Shown: positions 19,648 through 29,263 of the stretch, piece by piece | How the letters are laid out: each line of letters begins with the position of its first letter | How positions within the stretch are numbered: the first letter of the stretch is position 1 | Origin: Erodium maritimum | Lineage: Eukaryota > Streptophyta > Magnoliopsida > Geraniales > Geraniaceae | Assembly (NCBI GenBank): GCA_963921825.1 | Contig: OY997595.1 | Span: forward strand, 14,625,228 to 14,689,227 | Direction: 5' to 3' | DNA length: 64,000 nucleotides | Position numbers and translations under genes: made by a program | The notes under the pieces: model-generated | The model's input: the letters and a program-made list of their open reading frames with translations, nothing else | The model's database searches: none | What the model was told of the DNA's origin: nothing

Positions 19648-20045
19648 TAGGGTTATTTTTATCCCACTACTCTAATTATGTGGTTTTTTCATTTCACTAC
19701 CCTAACTATTTTTTGTGGCATTTCACTATCCTCTAGTGCATTTTTTTTTCACTTTCATACCCGCCGTCAGTTTGTCATCCATTTTTGGATGAACACTTAA
19801 AAAGTCTAATACTCAGCACTAACAATCAAATTTTCAAAAGCATTCTATTGGTTTTCAAAATCTTTAAAAAAATCAGTTTTTAATGTCACAAAAATGCATT
19901 CTAGGGTAGTGAGGTGTCACAAAAAATAGTTAGGGTATGAAAGTGAAGAAAAGACATTCTAGGATAGCGAGGTATCACAAAAAATAGTTAGGGTAGTGAG
20001 ATGAAAAAAAACCAGATAGTTAGGGTAGTGAAATGAAATGGACAT
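19648..20045. mobile_element. Fold-back MITE downstream of CP31
   Basis: Long imperfect terminal inverted repeats of about 110 bases. The left arm contains CACTACCCTAACTATT and CACTTTCATAC; the right arm contains AATAGTTAGGGTAGTG and GTATGAAAGTG. The unit TAGTTAGGGTAGTGA occurs several times within the arms. No ORF. It lies about 220 bases past the CP31 stop codon. Confidence 0.6.
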
Positions 20046-20330
20046 TTGTATGTTTGTACCCATATCTTTCAAATCGTTTTTGGTTGTGGCTCAAAACCGT
20101 TATGGGTTGAGGTCCCAAACTCAATACTTTGTTGCGCTTTATGACAATTTATTACAAAGTGATAATTTTTCAAACTTTCAATTAAAAATCAAAGTTAAAA
20201 GACATACATGCAAAACAGATTTTCAAATGTTATTATCATAATCAACTTTTTGGTTCTACTAATTGGGTTAATGAAATCCTACATTTTATTTTCTTACTTT
20301 TAATTTTCATGGACATAAACTTCGTGTCAG

Positions 20331-20530
20331 AGCATCTACATCTACAGTAATAGATGTTAAGAGGTTGTTTATGTCTGGTAATTCTGTTGAACAGAAAGAG
20401 AAATGAAAAGCATCTACAATGATAGATGTTAAAGAGGTTGTTTATGTCTGTTGAACGGAAGAGAGAAATGAAAAGAGGCTGCTAGACTGTCAATGGAAAG
20501 AGAGTATGTTACCTAGTGAGAGAGATTGTA
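20331..20530. repeat. Imperfect tandem duplication of about 80 bases
   Basis: AGCATCTACA..AATAGATGTTA..GAGGTTGTTTATGTCTG appears at about 20331 and again at about 20410 with small indels. The end resembles a short transposon terminus (GAGCATCTAC). The copia element at 20573 inserted just downstream. Confidence 0.55.
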
Positions 20531-20572
20531 TAAATATGATGATTTGTTGAATATACCAATTAAGGAATCAAT

Positions 20573-20807
20573 TGTTGTGATAATTTCTCAAACGATCGAA
20601 AACGAAACTAATAAACTTGATTTGTCTTAATAAAATAAGTTGATATAGTAATACTCTCTTTGATTTTAATTTCTGTCTTTTGTCTCTATACTTCATACAT
20701 GTACATTACATATATATAGTCTTCTCACTTTGCCTTAGTCATCAATCAAATGTGTGCATGATTGTCACGTATATGAGATGTGGTGGCCATCTATGTGCTC
20801 TACAACA
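20573..20807 (-). repeat. 3' LTR of the copia element
   Basis: 235 bases, bounded by TGTTGT and ACAACA. It is the 3' LTR in element orientation because the polypurine tract abuts it. Confidence 0.9.
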
Positions 20808-20820
20808 CTCCCCCTTGGAC
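20808..20820 (-). promoter_or_regulatory. Polypurine tract of the copia element
   Basis: Read on the minus strand the sequence is AAGGGGGAG immediately before the LTR, the position and composition expected of the plus-strand primer. Confidence 0.8.
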
Positions 20821-20849
20821 ACCACCATATACGAATGTATCAAATGCGC

Positions 20850-21310
20850 TTTAAGTTGCCTCGTTAAAAACCTCCTCAGGAAAACTCGGTGGGACGAAAC
20901 CTGTAAGGCAAAGAGTGCAACGCGCAAAACGTGCTTCATGCTGTGCTTGATCCTGCCTCGTTAAAAACATTTCCAATAAAACCATGTGAGACAAAACTTG
21001 GATAAGGGAAAAAGAGTGCAGCGCACAAAATTTATCCCCCCCTAACTTCAGGCAGGTTACTTTGGTTGTTCGGTTGAGTCGACACATCCTCATTTTGAAC
21101 ATTAACCTCTCAACAAGTGGATGTCAGGAAAGCCATACCGAGTAGAGTGCTTCTTCCATTTATTCACTTCTGGTGAGCTGGACGTGCATAACGGCTGCCT
21201 CGTTAAAAACCCTTTCAGGAAAACCTCGTGGGACAAAACCTGAATAAGGGAAAAAGAGTGCAACGCACGGAAACATACTCCCCCTGACTGTCGCTCCCCC
21301 TGAAGACCGA
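20850..21310 (-). repeat. Copia 3' UTR repeats
   Basis: The motif GCCTCGTTAAAAAC recurs at about 20858, 20956 and 21197, each followed by AGGAAAAC or a variant, GGGACAAAACCTG and, further on, GAGTGCAACGCAC. Minus-strand AGGGGGAG also recurs at about 21280-21303. Such repeats mark the 3' non-coding end of plant copia elements. Confidence 0.65.
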
Positions 21311-23739
21311 ATGAGTAATCTCGGCTACTTGCAAATTCGACTCATATTTTCTTGTACTCTGACTTTCCCAAAACCGATGTTACCCAATTATCAGTGAACC
21401 AAACCTGCAGGATTTTCACTACGTGATTCTGATTGACGTCAATCTCATGACTCTTCTAGAGTTCATGATAAAAGGATTTCAGAGCACTTAGTGGTTGCAA
21501 CCAAAACACTGAACACTGAAAACTGTCTTCCCAAACTATAACCGTCCCAGGACATGGTTTGCAGATCTGCTTCTTTCTCAAAACCGGTAAATAGTTTCTG
21601 AACTCAAAACTGGCTAGCACATTTACTGCGAATTTTCTATCAGGCCTTGTACATCATAACGTCTCAAATTTAGATATGGTACTCCAGAACCAAATATCTT
21701 TCCATCTCTTTGATACAAATGAGATCCTCTTTAGGACCTAAATATCGATCGATCGTTTGAATATTAAGTCGAAAGCGCTTCAGGCGTTTTCTTAACATAT
21801 GCATATTTATGGATCCATTTGAAAATACGCTCGATCTTCAGGCCAAGACAATAATTAACCATCAAAGCTTTCATTTGAAAGTCTTTCTTTAGACATATTG
21901 CAGTTTCAAGGACCTCTTAAGGAGTCCATATATTATCGACCCACACTGCTTACTGAGTACATGGTTTCTCATACCATGTCTCATTACCTCATGCAAATCT
22001 AACCCTTCAGAGAGTCATTTCTCTAGATAATCATAAATCCTTTGGGGAATGGAATTGCTTCTGGCAATTTAAATTTTCAAGGGATTTGCTTTAGGCAAGT
22101 TGCAATGTTTCAGGCAATGCATGAGATTTGCTTCAGGCAAACTATAATGCTTCAGGCAAACTGCAATGCTTCAGGCAATGTAGGTCCTTCGGGGACTTTT
22201 ATAAAGGTCGGCACTTAAAATTACCATTAGCAGTGGGTACATATATCTAATATACCATGGTGATCACACAACACAACTTTATCAAAAGTTGGCTTTAAGT
22301 TATTTGAGAAAAATACCTTTATAAGGCGCGTTTTATATTCAGCATCTTTGTTTTCTCATTCATCTATATCCAGCTGATAAAATATCCTTCGATGTTTTGA
22401 TCATGATTTTGAACATTGGACATTATACCAATAAGTCAATTCTTCTGGAATGACATTTTCTCGTATTGGCCAAACATGTCTTTAAATGACAGTAGTCAAC
22501 ACCACGTGGTTCAATGTCAAAATCATCTAGCATTTCAATCATGGTAATAGTAATGCCTTTATCAATGGAACCGATTTTCGGTTCCATGATTCTCAATATG
22601 TGAGAACGATATGCATTTGCTCATTCCTTTGTTCTTCTGGAACTAACGCTTTTGTTTGAACTGATATTCTTCTTAAATCAATTTCGAGAATAAATTTATA
22701 TCACGCTCATTCACGATCTGCCTTTTTGGCAGAAGCGATTGATTCTTCTGGAATCGACGGTTTTTCTTAAACCGAAGTTTCTGTTGGAACAGATTCCGAT
22801 AGTGAAGACATATTATGTTCATCATTAAAATTCGCCTAATTCTTTCTCTCTTGTTCAATATTATTTGATCCAAGTATCCTCTCACACTTCTGGCGTGTAC
22901 AAGAGGAGTCATTCTCCACCTTCACAAAGCTTTTAAATTTTCGCTGGTATCTTGGTATGACCTTATTATTTTTATAAATGTGTATAGCATTCGGTTTGCA
23001 ACATTTTTCAAATGTGCGAGCTTATATACTTTAGGTACATATGATGAGACAAAAATAATTCTTCCAAGAACATTTCATGCCTTATTTTAGGAAGGTCTTC
23101 TCTCTTCACTTCAAGGTGAACGATATCGTCTCATCAAAATGAAACTGACAGATCATGCAATAAACATCTTGTCCTTCAGGGACTCAAGATACCAGCATTG
23201 TCAAGGCGATCGATTTTATAAAGCGTTAGCAAATGCAATGTTACACGATAAGACCATCTTCTGGATGCGTCTCTTATAAAATAAGTATTAAGATACTTCA
23301 TAAGACCATAAGACCATTTTTTGGATGTGTCTCTTATAAAATAAGTATGGTCACATCCTCATGAATTCTGTACTTGAGTAATTAAAATTCCATACTAAAA
23401 TTGTCTTTGGATGGTTGGACCACAAAATATATCTTGTGAGAAGCAACACAAAATACTTCATAGGACATTTGAACATTCTAGTTCTTTAAATAAAGTCCGT
23501 ACTAATTCTCAATGATCCCACGCATCATCTTCGATCCAAATGATCAATACGAATACGTCGACATATAAAACATTTTCATTATCGAACTTCTAGTTCAATA
23601 TAGCGTAGGCATTGACTGTTCTTGTATAACTTATGTATATGAACATTTAGATTTCTAGTACTTTCTTTTCACCATGTTTATCACTTCTGGTGATACAGAG
23701 AAACTCAGTCTCATTTGTGGTCTCCACATGATCGTTGAC

Positions 23740-23845
23740 ACTAAGTAGATGCTTCTGGATCTACTTTCATATAGAGCATTTTCAACACTGAGTAGATGCT
23801 TCTGGATCTATTTTAACATTGAGTAGATGCTTCTGGATCTACTTT
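23740..23845. repeat. Three copies of a GAGTAGATGCTTCTGGATCTA unit
   Basis: The hairpin unit AGTAGATGCTTCTGGATCTA starts at about 23744, 23791 and 23822. Stem is AGTAGAT with loop GCTTCTGG. A local amplification inside the hairpin ladder. Confidence 0.75.
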
Positions 23846-24614
23846 CATATAGAACATTAATGCTTAACTTCATTGTAAACCTCAATGACATGGTAGGTCT
23901 TTCGGAAACCTTAGTTTTACCAATGGCAACCGTATTATGTAGTGATGCACATATCATTTTCATTTTTGCACATGAATTGATCGCTTCAGGGATCAATATA
24001 TAATAGACGAAATGAACCATGATTATATCGGCTACATCGTTATATAGAGTCGTCTGAGACATTCAATTCATTTAGATCTTCCGGATCTAGGTCATCAATC
24101 AGACTTTATCTCTATCACCCTTTTCTTTTACCCTTGTTTGATGTTTGATGTAAAGGCATCAAAACATTTAGTCATACAACATGTATTCGACCAATGATCG
24201 CTCGTCTCATATATAACATAAACTTTCATCGTTTTCGGGAGTTCAACTCTATAAGCAGCTTTCTTTGTGCCTTTCGTATTTGTCCCACTTCGGGTGGGAT
24301 TTTGAGATCGAAAGTTATAATGCATGCTAGAATGATCGAGGTCTCAATATGTTCCGAGTCTAGAATTACCATCATGATTTATCTCATTCACTTCTGGGAA
24401 TGGTATACTGCCAATATGGCGAGTTTGATGGTTTTTCAGTAATAACTTATTATTTCGACGATGAGTATACATGAAATTAATTACGAATATATAAGTTCGT
24501 ATTCCCCGATACTAATACTATTGGAGCATGTGGGATAAAGGAACAAATATTTTTTTTATAGCCAAACTAATATGGCGATGTTTGGAAATAATTATATCTT
24601 TGAAATGAACTGTC

Positions 24615-24960
24615 AGGTTTATATGAACTTCTGGTCATATAAATAACAAGATTGCACCCTGAATCAGAATCTCAAGCTCTGTGAAATTTAAGTCGGTATG
24701 AACTTCTGGCCATATGACATTTAACAATATTGCACATATAAAATTCTCATTAAAAGAATGGTTCATTACATTTATTTCAGATTCTATGAAACTTTAAGTC
24801 CGTATGAACTTCTGGTCATACGACATTTAGACATGGTGCACATATAAATTTCCATTTGAACGATGGTGAAATGAACTTATCTCAAATCCCGTGAAATGTT
24901 AAGTCTGTATGAACTTCTGGTCCTACGACATTCAACAATGGTGAACATATCCGTTTCACT
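24615..24960. repeat. Degenerate tandem units around GTATGAACTTCTGGTCATAC
   Basis: Four units with spacing of about 80-105 bases, hairpins at about 24618, 24694, 24798 and 24903. Stems are kept by partly compensating changes (TTTATATGA/TCATATAAA in one, GTCnGTATGA/TCATACGAC in another) while the loop ACTTCTGG stays the same. Confidence 0.7.
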
Positions 24961-25086
24961 GGAACGAATAATTTAATGAACTTGTCTTTGACGGTTTTGG
25001 AACTTCGGGTCCAAAGTATCATGATATTTGTAAGCTTCGGGTTACATATATTCAACATTTGAATAATCATAATTATATATATAAAA

Positions 25087-25320
25087 CCACACAATGAGCG
25101 AACTCACGGGGTAAACATAAGAAACGCGTGAATTAGATATAGGTATAACCGCACAACGAGCGAAATCGCGGTGTATAATAAATATATAAATCAAGTATAT
25201 ACATAACCGCACAACGAGCGAACTCGCGGGGTAAGCATAATAAACGCTGAAATTAAATATATAAGTATATCCTCACAACGAGCAAGCTCGTGGGGTAGAC
25301 ATACTAAATATAAATAGTTT
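25087..25320. repeat. Four tandem units of about 60 bases, CCGCACAACGAGCG
   Basis: Units begin at 25087, 25149, 25207 and 25271. Each has C-C-N-C-ACAA-NGAG-CNAA-NTC-NNGG(G) and an AT-rich tail. The core forms CGAG/CTCG with loop CGAA, which is a TTCG loop on the minus (element sense) strand. It lies in the leader side of the copia element, between the hairpin ladder and the 5' LTR. Confidence 0.7.
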
Positions 25321-26007
25321 CATATAAAATTTTAGACTTCAAGCCTTGGACACAAGTTACAGGCTTCAGGCCAATGCTTTCAGCTTGTGACCTTAATACA
25401 AGTTATATGCTTCAAGCATGTGGTCTGTATTCTGCCTTTTAAGGACATGTTACAGGCTTCGGGCCTGTGATTTGTCAATCGGTCATAAATACAAGTATCA
25501 AGCTCCAGGCTTGTAATTTATCGTTTGACCGTATAGGCAAGTATCGGGCTTCGGGCCTGTGATTTATCATGTGGCCGTAAAAGGAAAAATATCAATCCCC
25601 AGGATTGTAATTTATTATTTGTCCATAAAATCATATATATCAGGCCTCGACCATGTGATTTTTCATTTGGTCGTTCAGGCACATATCAAACATTGGCTTA
25701 CGATTTTTCATTTGGAGCTTCTGGTCTCAAATGATTTGGTTTCGGTATAATACTGTTTCACAAATAATGTTACTAAAATAAATCAATATCGACAAAGCTT
25801 AACACGTAACAAGATTTCAATATGACCATATTTTCTGATGTGAAATATCCAAAATATTATTTGGCGATCACAGAGCACTTGTAGGGTATAAAAATCAGAT
25901 CCAAATAAGTACGGAACGAACACAAATATATTTCACGAGTACCGTTAATAAATAATATCAACGAATCAAATTTATGATAATATGAAACTTTATACCTGAA
26001 CGATCGA

Positions 26008-26031
26008 ACCGAGCTCTTCGTGCTGATAACG
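26008..26031 (-). promoter_or_regulatory. Probable primer-binding region of the copia element
   Basis: On the minus strand the LTR end ACAACA is followed at once by CGTTATCAGCACGAAGAG. This is where a tRNA primer-binding site must lie. I could not match it to the usual initiator-Met site (TGGTATCAGAGC), so the primer is not identified. Confidence 0.5.
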
Positions 26032-26266
26032 TGTTGTGATAATTTCTCAAACGATCGAAAACGAAACTAATAAACTTGATTTGCCTTGATAAAATAACTT
26101 GATATAGTAATACTCTCTTTGATTTTAATTTCTGTCTTTTGTCTCTATACATCATACATGTACATTACATATATATAGTCTTCTCACTTTGCCTTAGTCA
26201 TTAATCAAATGTGTGCATGATTGCCACGTATATGAAATGTGGTGGTCATCCATGTGTTCTACCACA
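26032..26266 (-). repeat. 5' LTR of the copia element
   Basis: 235 bases, the pair of 20573-20807. It contains the promoter side of the element in minus orientation; no further elements assigned. Confidence 0.9.
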
Positions 26267-26271
26267 TCAAT

Positions 26272-29263
26272 ACAATAATTAATGAGATTATATATTAATT
26301 AACATGAGTTGTAAAACAAACTTTCATTCCAATAGCTTGATAATTATATGAATGAAGACTTTTTTTATCACAATAATAATAGTGAAATATTATCAAGGAA
26401 AATTGATAGAAGACTAAACATAGTTATGGACATATCTGGAACGCTGAACCCATGAACAAATATACTGGATAACTCAGTTAAAATATTAAGGGCAGGATCT
26501 TTACTCGAAGATTGACGCTCTACAAAAACTACGAAAACTTCATCCGGCTTGATTCAGGTAAAGTTGTGTTGTATCAAATGCTTGTCAATCATGCTAAGAA
26601 GACCCCATGAGATTAAGAACGACAGGTAACCAAGGAGACATTTAGGGGAAGGAGGAGGATTGGGAACGAGTAATCTCAGGCCCCTCTGGGACAGGATACA
26701 ACTACTCTCTAATACCTCGGAAGTCCTGCGACTCATTGGACCTGGCGAGGCCACATAGTAGACCTCGTTTGGTTGATGCTTCCTTGTTCTTCGTACATCA
26801 GGGACAACGAGCGGGCAAATGCGGTGGAGCCATAGGTGGTGAGTCGGCGCTGGTTGGGGCGAAGCCGGTAGTCTTGAGGGTGGTTGCGATGGGGGGAGCA
26901 GATGCGGGAGTATCTCACACTGATTAGGCGGACTCGGTGATGGCGGTGGAGATAGTGGGGATGAGCGGGGTGCTGGCGAGAGCAAAGGAGATGGATGTTG
27001 GTGTAGGTGGGGAGGTGGAGGGGAGGGAGATGGTTGAATTAGAGCACCGGAGAAGGAGCAGCGTGACATACACAACAGGAGGCTAGGGCCAGCTGGAGGA
27101 AAGCTCTCCATCGTTTCCTGAGCAACTAATATTTAGTTGACGTAATGTGAATGAAGACTAATTACGTTACAAAACATCATATCTTGTTGAGAGATTCAAA
27201 ATTCCTCAAAAGCAGTAGTTAGTAAGGTCTTATACAGTTTGATCGTCTACTCTCTTCTGTCATCTTATAATCGTCCATATTTTTCAAATTTGCAATCTTC
27301 AAGTTGGATCTCTCTCACAATTTTCTTTTGTTCAAAACTCATGATGGTTATAAGTTGCTCGTTGTCATTTTTGATCGTGCATCAGACATTGGCAGCTTTC
27401 CTTTCCTTTTCACCCCATTTTGTCTTTATTAACAGACTTCCATCAATAGAGATGGATTAGTTCCAACAAGGTCTGCAGAATATTCATGTTGAGACCACTC
27501 TTAATCGTTTGATCCAGCTAGTTGGAATAAGATGTATGCAACAGATTCGTCCAACCATGTCCTCTTTAAGACTTGAAAGTCATACTCCCTCATCCGTTTT
27601 GGCTTTGTTTTGAACTAATCCCATCAATGCCTCCAAACGAACCGGGAAAGTGTTTCATTATGCGTGTGTAACTTTCTCGTCTTACCATAGAGCTAGTCAT
27701 CCATATGACCACTCATGTAGATTTCTACAACTATTCCAGTACTCGTGAAATTTTTTGACCTTATTGTTGATCTTAGACCAATAATCCTTGAATTGTTTCT
27801 TAGTTACGTTGATATCCTTATAGTGTTCTTTTCTTTATCGAGAAAAAATATAAATGAATTGAAAAGATGGAATGGGTCTTGGGATGGAAACCACATAGCA
27901 GCAAAACAAATTCTAACAATACCACAAGAAAGAAAAATAATACAAGGGTAGAGTAACCCACCACACCCTATAGAGATTGAGAAACCACTACCCCTTCCAA
28001 TTAGCAAGTGGTAACGGATTATCCCCAAACAGAATACACCATAAGAGAACGAGACAAAAGCAAAGAAACCAAAACATAAAGAACACAACTATTTGAGACA
28101 ATATAAGAGAGAAACCATAAAAGACTCATGAAATATTGATCTGAATGATGCACCCAACTTATCTAATGTTGGACCCTAGCAACAAGAAGTCTTAGAGAGA
28201 TGACCTCATCACCTTATGGCACCCTCATATTATGACCGAACCAGAGATTCCACGAACCCAACAACCCAATGCAAGACCAATCCTTCTTTAAGTGTCGATA
28301 GCTCAACAAAGGCCAAGAAGAAATGGGGAGAGTTAGTGAGAAGTGAAGGCCTAACACTCTAACAACATAACACTAAGAACCAGAACCGCCAAGACCAAGG
28401 ATAACATATTAATAAATCAGAGACATCCTATTGCAAAAAATTGTACAACAACCACGTTCATCTCCCAATAAGAATAAGGAAACCCTATCCCCAAGAAACA
28501 AGAAAGTGGGGGCTACCTCTAAGTGTATAACTAAGTGAGGGTCCAAAAGGAGGACCAAGGAAAAGTAGCAATTGACTCTCGATCGTAATAATCTCAAAAT
28601 ACCTAGAGAAAGAATAACTCTTAGAACCCAAATAGAAATATCAAACTTCCTTGGATCCATTCAAACCGCACAAAAGAGTACCTGAATCTTCTCTGAAACC
28701 TCCAAATCTCGATCCCAGAAAGTCCACCTGAAGGACCAACACCGATCACCACTCAATCAAAAATATACAACTACTTTAACCTACCCAAAAGTCAAAGCGC
28801 AAAGCTTAGGATACTAATGACCAAATGAACTTTATAAATCCAAGCATCCTCCCAAAAACATATCATAAGACCCGAACCCAATGACCCTTAAAGTGTTGTG
28901 AATCCAAAGACGGACTAATAATACTGATCTCGAGCAAGCGAAATAACATGACGAAGAAGCAAGGATGAAGAACGAGGAGGAAGAGGTAAGTCTTCCAACT
29001 ACCATCCCGACTTCTCCACTTATATTGGACGCATAAATCACATTTACAAGGATCCGGCCTCTGGGTAGTGAACATCCACCACCATTTTGTTGACCACACA
29101 CAAACTACGTACCTCAAGTTCACCATAATCTTTGGATGCACACACCATTCTCAAAGGAATCTTAGATAAACCCACACGATCAATACTAGAAATCCACAAG
29201 ATTTTCCTTCGATATATCTTCATTAAATGAATCCCTTTCTTAGGCTCTCTAAACATAAACATA
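26272..29263. other. Intergenic, decayed repeat DNA, no gene assigned
   Basis: A minus-strand open frame at 26554-27111 is Pro/Ser-rich with no recognisable domain, and its opposite strand is equally open, so I do not call it a gene. Near 27830 the minus strand resembles a LINE 3' end (TTTTTTCTCGATAAAG), suggesting old LINE sequence rightwards to about 29260. No RT motif was found there. Confidence 0.4.

What the first reader, a model, noticed from the sequence alone, without database searches (positions are those of the whole stretch)
21660..25740. Hairpin ladder: dozens of stem-loops with different stems but one loop core inside a copia element
Across about 4 kb the sequence repeatedly takes the form stem, then CTTCNGG-like core, then complementary stem. 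Stems of 5-10 bp have unrelated sequences, yet the loops are TTCTG, TTCAG, TTCGG or ACTTCTGG again and again. Stems are preserved by paired changes between local copies, as in the units near 24618, 24694 and 24798. On the + strand many loops match the very stable C(UUCG)G-type RNA tetraloop class; on the element's sense strand they read as CNGAA loops. This is not a normal tandem repeat and not what random decay of gag-pol would leave. It could be a selected RNA structure (packaging, protection, small-RNA source) or the scar of repeated template switching during reverse transcription that copies a short arm back in reverse.
Basis: partly seen in the sequence, partly recalled or inferred. Interest (0 to 1): 0.8.

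Follow-up and report, generated by a model that had tools for sequence, protein, structure and literature searches.

The report
Conserved hairpin array in plant retrotransposons
A family of plant jumping genes carries about thirty tiny hairpins with the same loop but different stems, kept by natural selection even in copies that no longer make any protein, which suggests that the hairpins are the tag by which their RNA is recognised and copied.

Summary
Interval 21660-25740 holds 31 CTTCNGG cores on the + strand and none on the - strand; 16 have a perfect stem of at least 4 bp (dinucleotide shuffles: means 0.65 and 0.01). The host element is a 5.7-kb LTR retrotransposon (sense = minus, TSD TCAAT) of the Bianca lineage of Ty1/copia, without coding capacity. 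The array is not decay: nine protein-coding copies in the same genome carry 22-26 cores in gag-pol, in all three frames, with far more stems than synonymous-codon shuffles. A Bianca element from another plant (contig L077) has them too, 11 of 15 pol cores at the same codons as here, with three compensatory pair changes. Changes shared by three or more copies are depleted in cores and stems, in coding and non-coding elements, while private changes are not: purifying selection during replication. Eight other copia loci lack the hairpins. Best mechanism (inferred): dispersed recognition hairpins for the element's own RNA-binding machinery, most likely Gag-mediated packaging, used in trans by non-coding copies. 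Acting strand and binder are not shown. The template-switch-scar reading is not supported.

The parts
20568..20572 (.). left target-site duplication TCAAT
   Evidence: equals 26267-26271
20573..20807 (-). 3' LTR of the element (235 bp, TG...CA); no core inside
   Evidence: 11 differences of 235 from the other LTR
20808..20818 (-). polypurine tract (sense CCAAGGGGGAG)
   Evidence: sequence; named by position and composition
20808..26031 (-). internal region, 5224 b, 33 hairpin cores on the sense strand, no coding capacity (stop-free frames >=100 aa in 19901-27000: one of 106 aa at 20644-20961 on +, one of 148 aa outside the element)
21660..25740 (-). interval of the finding: 31 cores (sense CCNGAAG), 16 with perfect stem >=4 bp
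22053..22069 (-). hairpin AATTGC-TTCTG-GCAATT (+ strand letters)
22741..22755 (-). hairpin GATTC-TTCTG-GAATC
23679..23695 (-). hairpin TATCAC-TTCTG-GTGATA
   Evidence: core in 18 of 24 aligned sequences, the window's counted
23743..23766 (-). hairpin AAGTAGAT-GCTTCTGG-ATCTACTT (unpaired G beside the closing pair)
   Evidence: core in 13 of 22; the coding copy L012 has a core and the same arms here
23822..23843 (-). hairpin AGTAGAT-GCTTCTGG-ATCTACT
   Evidence: core in 18 of 24
23976..23997 (-). hairpin ATTGATC-GCTTCAGG-GATCAAT
   Evidence: core in 22 of 24
24073..24089 (-). hairpin TAGATC-TTCCG-GATCTA
   Evidence: core in 20 of 24
24283..24299 (-). hairpin TCCCAC-TTCGG-GTGGGA
   Evidence: core in 9 of 9 sequences with the site
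24385..24402 (-). hairpin CATTC-ACTTCTGG-GAATG; a homologous hairpin lies in the gag ORF of the coding copy L012
   Evidence: core in 6 of 7
24618..24643 (-). hairpin TTTATATGA-ACTTCTGG-TCATATAAA
   Evidence: core in 21 of 24
24801..24822 (-). hairpin CGTATGA-ACTTCTGG-TCATACG, two paired changes against 24618
   Evidence: core in 15 of 21
24996..25015 (-). hairpin TTTGGA-ACTTCGGG-TCCAAA
   Evidence: core in 16 of 23
25029..25046 (-). hairpin TGTAA-GCTTCGGG-TTACA
   Evidence: core in 14 of 21
25452..25468 (-). hairpin ACAGGC-TTCGG-GCCTGT, one of a local row of similar hairpins
26018..26031 (-). primer binding site (sense CGTTATCAGCACGA), complementary to the anticodon arm of tRNA-Ile(AAT) with C opposite position 34
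   Evidence: the 17-mer around it has 490 exact copies in the genome, 0 for the reversed control
26032..26266 (-). 5' LTR (235 bp); no core inside
26267..26271 (.). right target-site duplication TCAAT

Best explanation
The ladder is a dispersed array of about 30 selected stem-loops, sense form stem-C[CNGAA]G-(optional unpaired base)-stem, found in coding and non-coding elements of the Bianca lineage of Ty1/copia. Loop core and pairing matter; the letters of the stems do not. Shown here: presence in coding and non-coding elements, strand-specific cores, synonymous-codon shaping, purifying selection on core and arms but no sign of it on the free loop base, and conservation with a few compensatory changes in another plant's element. 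Inferred: the hairpins act in the element's genomic RNA as repeated binding sites of the element's own RNA-binding protein, most likely Gag (the coding copies' gag has one CCHC knuckle), for selective packaging and assembly of the RNA, in the manner of dispersed packaging signals of RNA viruses. The non-coding element in this window keeps LTRs, PBS, PPT and the array, and so can be packaged and copied in trans by coding relatives.
For: Nine coding copies (stop-free gag/pol stretches): 22-26 cores against means of 7.8-10.4 in 300 synonymous shuffles each; 13-15 with stem score >=4 (closing pair counted) against 1.1-1.9, max 6. 556 distinct core contexts from 61 sequences: Watson-Crick stem >=4 in 232, against 22 when right arms are re-dealt (contexts of related copies are not independent). 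Selection, coding (reference L013, 15 other copies): changes shared by >=3 copies at 1 of 274 core+arm sites against 198 of 4324 others; private changes 53 of 274 against 528 of 4324; 0.0007 of mask shifts reach this; third codon positions alone 1 of 86 against 93 of 1441, p=0.025; shared/private table p=2.4e-6. Selection, non-coding (21 of 24 sequences): shared changes at 3 of 72 core and 10 of 128 arm sites against 262 of 1048 others and 63 of 322 near neighbours; free base N 3 of 12. Another plant (L077, pol 69% identical): 17 coding cores, 11 with stems, against 5.9 and 0.67 (max 9 and 3 of 500 shuffles); 11 of 15 pol cores at the codons of L013 cores, codon-shifted alignments give 0.09 on average, max 3; 3 compensatory pair changes in 9 shared hairpins. 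PBS-anchored copies: cores in 19 of 20, 100 sense to 1 antisense. Eight other copia loci: 0-1 core each, none with a stem. CCHC in gag of L013 and, intact, in 6 of 7 other coding copies searched. Local pairing probability of core stems on the sense strand 0.54-0.68 in four elements, against 0.24-0.27 for equal stems without the core.
Against: No binding, packaging or expression data. The acting strand is not settled: wobble counts are mixed, and the only shared arm change in the coding set makes A-C on the sense strand. Isolated hairpins are more stable on the antisense strand in 4 of 4 elements. Close relatives show little covariation: 20 both-sided Watson-Crick cells against 9-14 in slid controls. 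A first test that did not separate shared from private changes showed no depletion of variable sites in cores or arms. Coding arms alone are marginal (p=0.02; 0.054 of mask shifts). Private changes are in excess in coding cores and arms (53 of 274, p=0.001), which I put down to their make-up without a test. With the three poorly aligned non-coding copies kept, the core depletion against near sites is absent at a threshold of 2 copies (23 of 72 against 112 of 322, p=0.68) and weak at 3 (p=0.12); the arm depletion stays (p<0.001). Six of the one-sided changes between L013 and L077 are to or from mismatches. Cross-species DNA rests on one contig.
Confidence: 0.5

Rival explanations
1. The hairpins are selected in the element RNA but bind a host factor (nuclear export, stability, escape from silencing), not Gag.
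For: All sequence evidence for selection fits. Non-coding copies keep the array, so translation is not the point; export or stability would serve them too.
Against: A single export or stability element would usually do; about 30 sites spread over the whole RNA fit cooperative coating better (inference). No host binder is known to me here.
Confidence: 0.25
2. The hairpins act in the single-stranded minus-strand cDNA or in an antisense RNA (+ strand of the window, C[TTCNG]G loops), for instance in reverse transcription or strand transfer.
For: Isolated hairpins are more stable on that strand; among pair states held by >=3 non-coding copies, G-T of that strand outnumbers A-C 18 to 9, though slid control pairs of the same alignment also mostly hold more G-T than A-C (5 of 6 shifts).
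Against: Between species, one-sided changes favour sense wobble 6 to 2. I know of no antisense transcript, and made no search for one.
Confidence: 0.12
3. Mutational scar: fold-back template switching at a CCNGAAG-like pause creates hairpins, without function.
For: Many stems with one loop core; local duplicates of units (24628, 24703, 24809, 24914). It could still be how new hairpins arise.
Against: Shared changes are depleted in core and arms while private ones are not; hairpins at the same codons with compensatory changes across plants; codon choice in gag-pol is shaped.
Confidence: 0.05
4. Protein constraint: Pro-Glu rich repeats in pol explain the cores.
For: More than half of coding cores lie in the Pro-Glu frame (14 of 24 in L012), several in a repeat-like linker.
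Against: Other frames carry 10 of 24 in L012; stems exceed synonymous shuffles; three non-coding elements have as many or more (33, 34 and 43).
Confidence: 0.02

Closest known systems
Bianca lineage of Ty1/copia (Neumann et al. 2019, PMC6317226, passages seen)
   Same: Half-tRNA-Ile PBS; copia gag and pol in two ORFs; this element and its coding relatives fit these two marks
   Different: The passages that I saw describe no hairpin array; 'hairpin' occurs 0 times in that main text; its supplements were not seen
Dispersed packaging signals of RNA viruses (MS2, hepatitis B virus and others; Twarock et al. 2018, PMC6281560, passages seen)
   Same: Many dispersed stem-loops with varied sequence around one recognition motif, in MS2 with an unpaired base near it
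   Different: Here in an LTR retrotransposon; binding not shown
LARDs, large retrotransposon derivatives (PMC7215508, passages seen)
   Same: Non-coding LTR elements with conserved RNA structure, thought to be mobilised in trans
   Different: Here the structure is a repeated hairpin shared with the coding partner, which links the two
Ty1 packaging region (PMC8396678: passages seen; PMC5454406: search listing with start of abstract)
   Same: Structured RNA recognised by a copia-type Gag
   Different: Ty1 signals lie at the 5' end (pseudoknot, kissing loops); here about 30 sites over the whole RNA, and the loop is not self-complementary

Membership tests
Bianca (Ty1/copia) | PBS complementary to half tRNA-Ile with edited anticodon | tested here: met
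   PBS 26018-26031 pairs with the anticodon arm of tRNA-Ile(AAT), C opposite position 34; the tRNA pattern has 41 places in the genome, 2 were examined and both are tRNA-Ile(AAT) genes; definition from PMC6317226
Bianca (Ty1/copia) | copia-type gag and pol in two separate ORFs | tested here: met
   In the coding relative L013: gag PF14223, pol rve and RVT_2, about 100 b apart. The window copy itself has no ORFs; it belongs through LTR, PBS and partial homology
Bianca (Ty1/copia) | position in an RT tree | not tested
   no tree was built
LARD | LTRs, PBS, PPT and TSD without coding capacity, multicopy | tested here: met
LARD | transcribed and mobilised in trans | not testable with these tools
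   intact insertion structure implies past mobilisation only
Dispersed packaging signals | multiple dispersed stem-loops sharing a recognition motif | tested here: met
Dispersed packaging signals | motif and pairing under selection independent of coding | tested here: met
   non-coding copies, (depends on the threshold, see the Against line); third codon positions
Dispersed packaging signals | specific binding to the capsid protein and effect on assembly | not testable with these tools
   needs binding and packaging assays
cUUCGg tetraloops | UUCG loop closed by C-G | tested here: not met
   the base after UUC is free; G there on + (sense C) in 61 of 556 contexts
Rfam families | match to a curated covariance model | tested here: not met
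   0 matches up to E=0.5 in 20500-26300

The most novel reading that the evidence does not exclude
Bianca retrotransposons carry a genome-wide code of about 30 Gag-binding packaging hairpins, conserved across distant plants and written over the gag-pol frame by codon choice; non-coding relatives have shed all proteins and live on as an RNA whose main content is this packaging code. It would be, as far as my searches and memory go, the first dispersed packaging-signal array in an LTR retrotransposon.
Probability: 0.45. Interest if true: 0.9.

Novelty: new variant of a known kind. Interest (0 to 1): 0.82.

Why it matters
How plant LTR retrotransposons pick out their own RNA, and how non-coding copies borrow the machinery, is to my knowledge open. 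Here a precise seven-letter motif with pairing arms can be counted, is under measurable selection, and comes with a natural experiment: many non-coding copies that kept it (for each of three pieces of the element the 40 best places were scored out of 406-450 candidates). It makes packaging specificity, trans-mobilisation and the idea of dispersed packaging signals directly testable outside viruses, and may serve as a mark by which Bianca elements and their parasites can be recognised.

Tried and rejected
Covariation within close relatives alone: too little divergence, and both-sided changes scarcely exceed slid controls. Strand from wobble pairs: mixed. Rates per site without separating shared from private changes: the share of variable sites in cores and arms did not differ from shifted masks; the change rate of core+arm was lower (0.03 of shifts). 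The split into shared and private changes was made after seeing this, so its threshold of 3 copies is a choice; other thresholds for the non-coding set are. Evenness of spacing: 2 of 6 elements more even than random, 3 of 6 rather uneven. Pro-Glu dipeptides as a cross-species proxy: 355 against 241 expected in 64 Bianca-like pol proteins, reverse dipeptide 227; 8 more distant proteins 23 against 31.7: suggestive only. Viral contigs: no relative. Plasmids: three distant copia matches at 25-32%, not used. Kissing-loop dimerisation rejected by reasoning: the loop is not self-complementary. enod40 stem-loops from a copia element (PMC10578108, passages) and TGTT/AACA elements (PMC5659011, passages): no link found. 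Literature: nine answered searches, most with lists cut at 10-20 rows, showed no paper on such an array; most subscription papers are not held.
Full report
What is there. The interval lies in a 5.7-kb LTR retrotransposon in a genome of 763 Mb, which I take for a plant's. Sense is the minus strand: two LTRs of 235 bp (20573-20807, 26032-26266; 11 differences), 5-bp target-site duplication TCAAT, polypurine tract at 20808, PBS at 26018-26031. The PBS is complementary to the anticodon arm of tRNA-Ile(AAT), with C opposite position 34, the mark of the Bianca lineage of Ty1/copia according to the passages of PMC6317226 that I saw. The copy has no long reading frame, yet its target-site duplication shows that it was inserted as a complete element.

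The observation. CTTCNGG occurs 31 times on + and 0 times on - in the stated interval, against 6 and 13 in 57.3 kb of the window outside 20301-27000. Of the 31, 16 have a perfect Watson-Crick stem of at least 4 bp outside the closing C-G pair; dinucleotide shuffles give 0.65 cores and 0.01 hairpins on average, maxima 5 and 1 of 500 shuffles. The internal region holds 33 cores, the two LTRs none. In sense letters the unit is stem-C[CNGAA]G-stem, often with one unpaired base 3' of the closing G. Over 61 sequences, 1022 core occurrences fall into 556 distinct contexts, many of them related; 232 have a stem of at least 4 in the best of five registers, against 22 when right arms are re-dealt among contexts; N is free.

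It is not decay. Of 20 long copies taken as the best matches to the 3' end, nine carry long gag and pol frames (L013: gag PF14223, pol with rve and RVT_2). These have 24-30 cores per 8-kb stretch on the same strand and 0-2 on the other, in all three reading frames. Shuffling synonymous codons within each frame leaves on average 7.8-10.4 of the 22-26 coding cores, and 1.1-1.9 of the 13-15 with a stem score of at least 4, the closing pair counted. Twenty PBS-anchored copies, about every fifth of the first 100 listed of 490 exact PBS sites, hold 100 sense cores and 1 antisense, with cores in 19 of 20. Eight loci with the best RVT_2 matches hold 0-1 core in their longest frame and none with a stem; I did not type their lineages, and six share the same frame length, so they may be few families. 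So the array is a property of the Bianca elements of this genome and not of one broken copy.

Selection. I compared changes shared by at least three copies (which passed through replication) with private ones (mostly after insertion). In coding copies (reference L013, 15 others; left out of the 20: the reference itself, three non-coding copies, and L024 with 453 aligned bases), shared changes hit 0 of 150 core sites and 1 of 124 arm sites, against 198 of 4324 other coding sites. Private changes are not depleted but in excess (53 of 274 against 528 of 4324). Only 0.0007 of shifted masks do as well for core plus arm, 0.005 for core, 0.054 for arm alone; third codon positions alone give 1 of 86 against 93 of 1441, p=0.025; the shared/private table gives p=2.4e-6. 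An earlier test that did not separate the two kinds of change showed no fewer variable sites in hairpins. In the non-coding relatives of the window copy (24 sequences, 3 of them dropped for identity below 0.73), shared changes hit 3 of 72 core and 10 of 128 arm sites, against 262 of 1048 other sites and 63 of 322 neighbouring sites; the free base N has 3 of 12; private changes are not depleted. With the three kept, cores have 11 of 72 against 78 of 322 near sites at a threshold of three copies (p=0.12), 3 against 63 at four (p=0.0008) and 23 against 112 at two (p=0.68); arms are depleted at every threshold tried, p<0.001. Selection thus acts on core and pairing in elements that make no protein, with the caveat that the core signal depends on the threshold and on leaving out the poorly aligned copies.

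Another plant. A scan of bacterial and archaeal genomes with an alignment of 18 pol proteins found one contig of 5601 b under Solirubrobacter sp. CPCC 204708, which encodes a Bianca pol 69% identical to L013 over 1176 aligned residues; I read it as plant DNA in that assembly. It has 21 sense and 2 antisense cores; in its coding frames 17 cores, 11 with stems, against 5.9 and 0.67 in synonymous shuffles (max 9 and 3 of 500). Of its 15 pol cores, 11 align with cores of L013 at the same codons, and of 22 pol cores of L013 likewise 11; shifting the alignment by 4 to 600 codons gives 0.09 on average, at most 3. Two of the 11 lie in a repeat-like linker where the alignment is doubtful. In the other nine, three pairs changed on both sides and stayed Watson-Crick (one in a register with two unpaired bases), 29 were unchanged Watson-Crick, six one-sided changes were between Watson-Crick and sense G-U, two between Watson-Crick and A-C, and six to or from a mismatch.

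How it most likely works. A non-coding element needs from its internal region only what its RNA must show to the borrowed machinery: recognition, packaging, priming and the like. About 30 equal loops on unlike stems, spread from 250-400 b inside the PBS to about 250 b from the PPT in five elements of this genome and absent from the LTRs of the window copy, fit repeated binding sites of one protein. Gag is the likeliest: it is the RNA-binding protein of the coding partner and has one CCHC knuckle. The architecture matches the concept of dispersed packaging signals (PMC6281560, passages). Shown: array, strand-specific core, selection, conservation. Inferred: RNA as the acting form, Gag as binder, packaging as function. 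The strand could not be settled: leans to the antisense strand, to sense, one search is even (3 sense G-U, 5 A-C). Isolated hairpins are more stable on the antisense strand; in the local context both strands pair about equally (0.54-0.68 and 0.48-0.71) and well above control stems (0.24-0.27).

Relation to the known. LARDs are non-coding LTR elements with conserved RNA structure (PMC7215508, passages); this element is of that kind, and the shared hairpin ties it to its coding partner. Ty1 has packaging signals near its 5' end (PMC8396678, passages; PMC5454406, listing). Rfam has no match. My nine answered searches, with lists mostly cut at 10-20 rows, showed no description of such an array; that is not proof of absence, as most subscription papers are not held.

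Noticed in passing
window 25080-25310: Four spaced copies of a second imperfect hairpin type (CCRCACAAYGAGCRA...CTCGYGGGG-like) with some paired differences between copies, different from the ladder hairpins.
   Followed up: partly
window 20840-21290: Direct repeats (TGCCTCGTTAAAAACC...GGGACAAAACCTG-like) beside the polypurine tract, also seen in the copies aligned, matching each other at about 74-89%.
   Followed up: no
L009, L010, L018, L019, L023, L025, L027: Mosaic copies: about 2 kb next to the 3' LTR is like the window's non-coding element (83-89%), the rest gag-pol-like, which points to recombination between coding and non-coding RNAs.
   Followed up: partly
window element, L011, L022, L013, L023: Non-coding and coding elements have nearly the same internal length (about 5.0-5.4 kb, some ends set by hand), as if length itself were kept.
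   Followed up: partly
L077 (NZ_QPKJ02000023.1): A Solirubrobacter assembly holds a contig that encodes a plant-type Bianca pol: probable contamination. A protein filed under Corynebacterium sp. MC-13 (P0086) looks alike.
   Followed up: partly
plasmid records NZ_CP115454.1, NZ_CP115302.1, NC_015657.1: Small 'plasmid' records of actinobacteria encode distant copia-type pol proteins (25-32% identical), perhaps plant retrotransposon DNA in those assemblies.
   Followed up: no
L077:5370-5601: Four near-identical hairpins with the core, about 65 b apart, in the 3' part of the contig beyond the pol frame.
   Followed up: no
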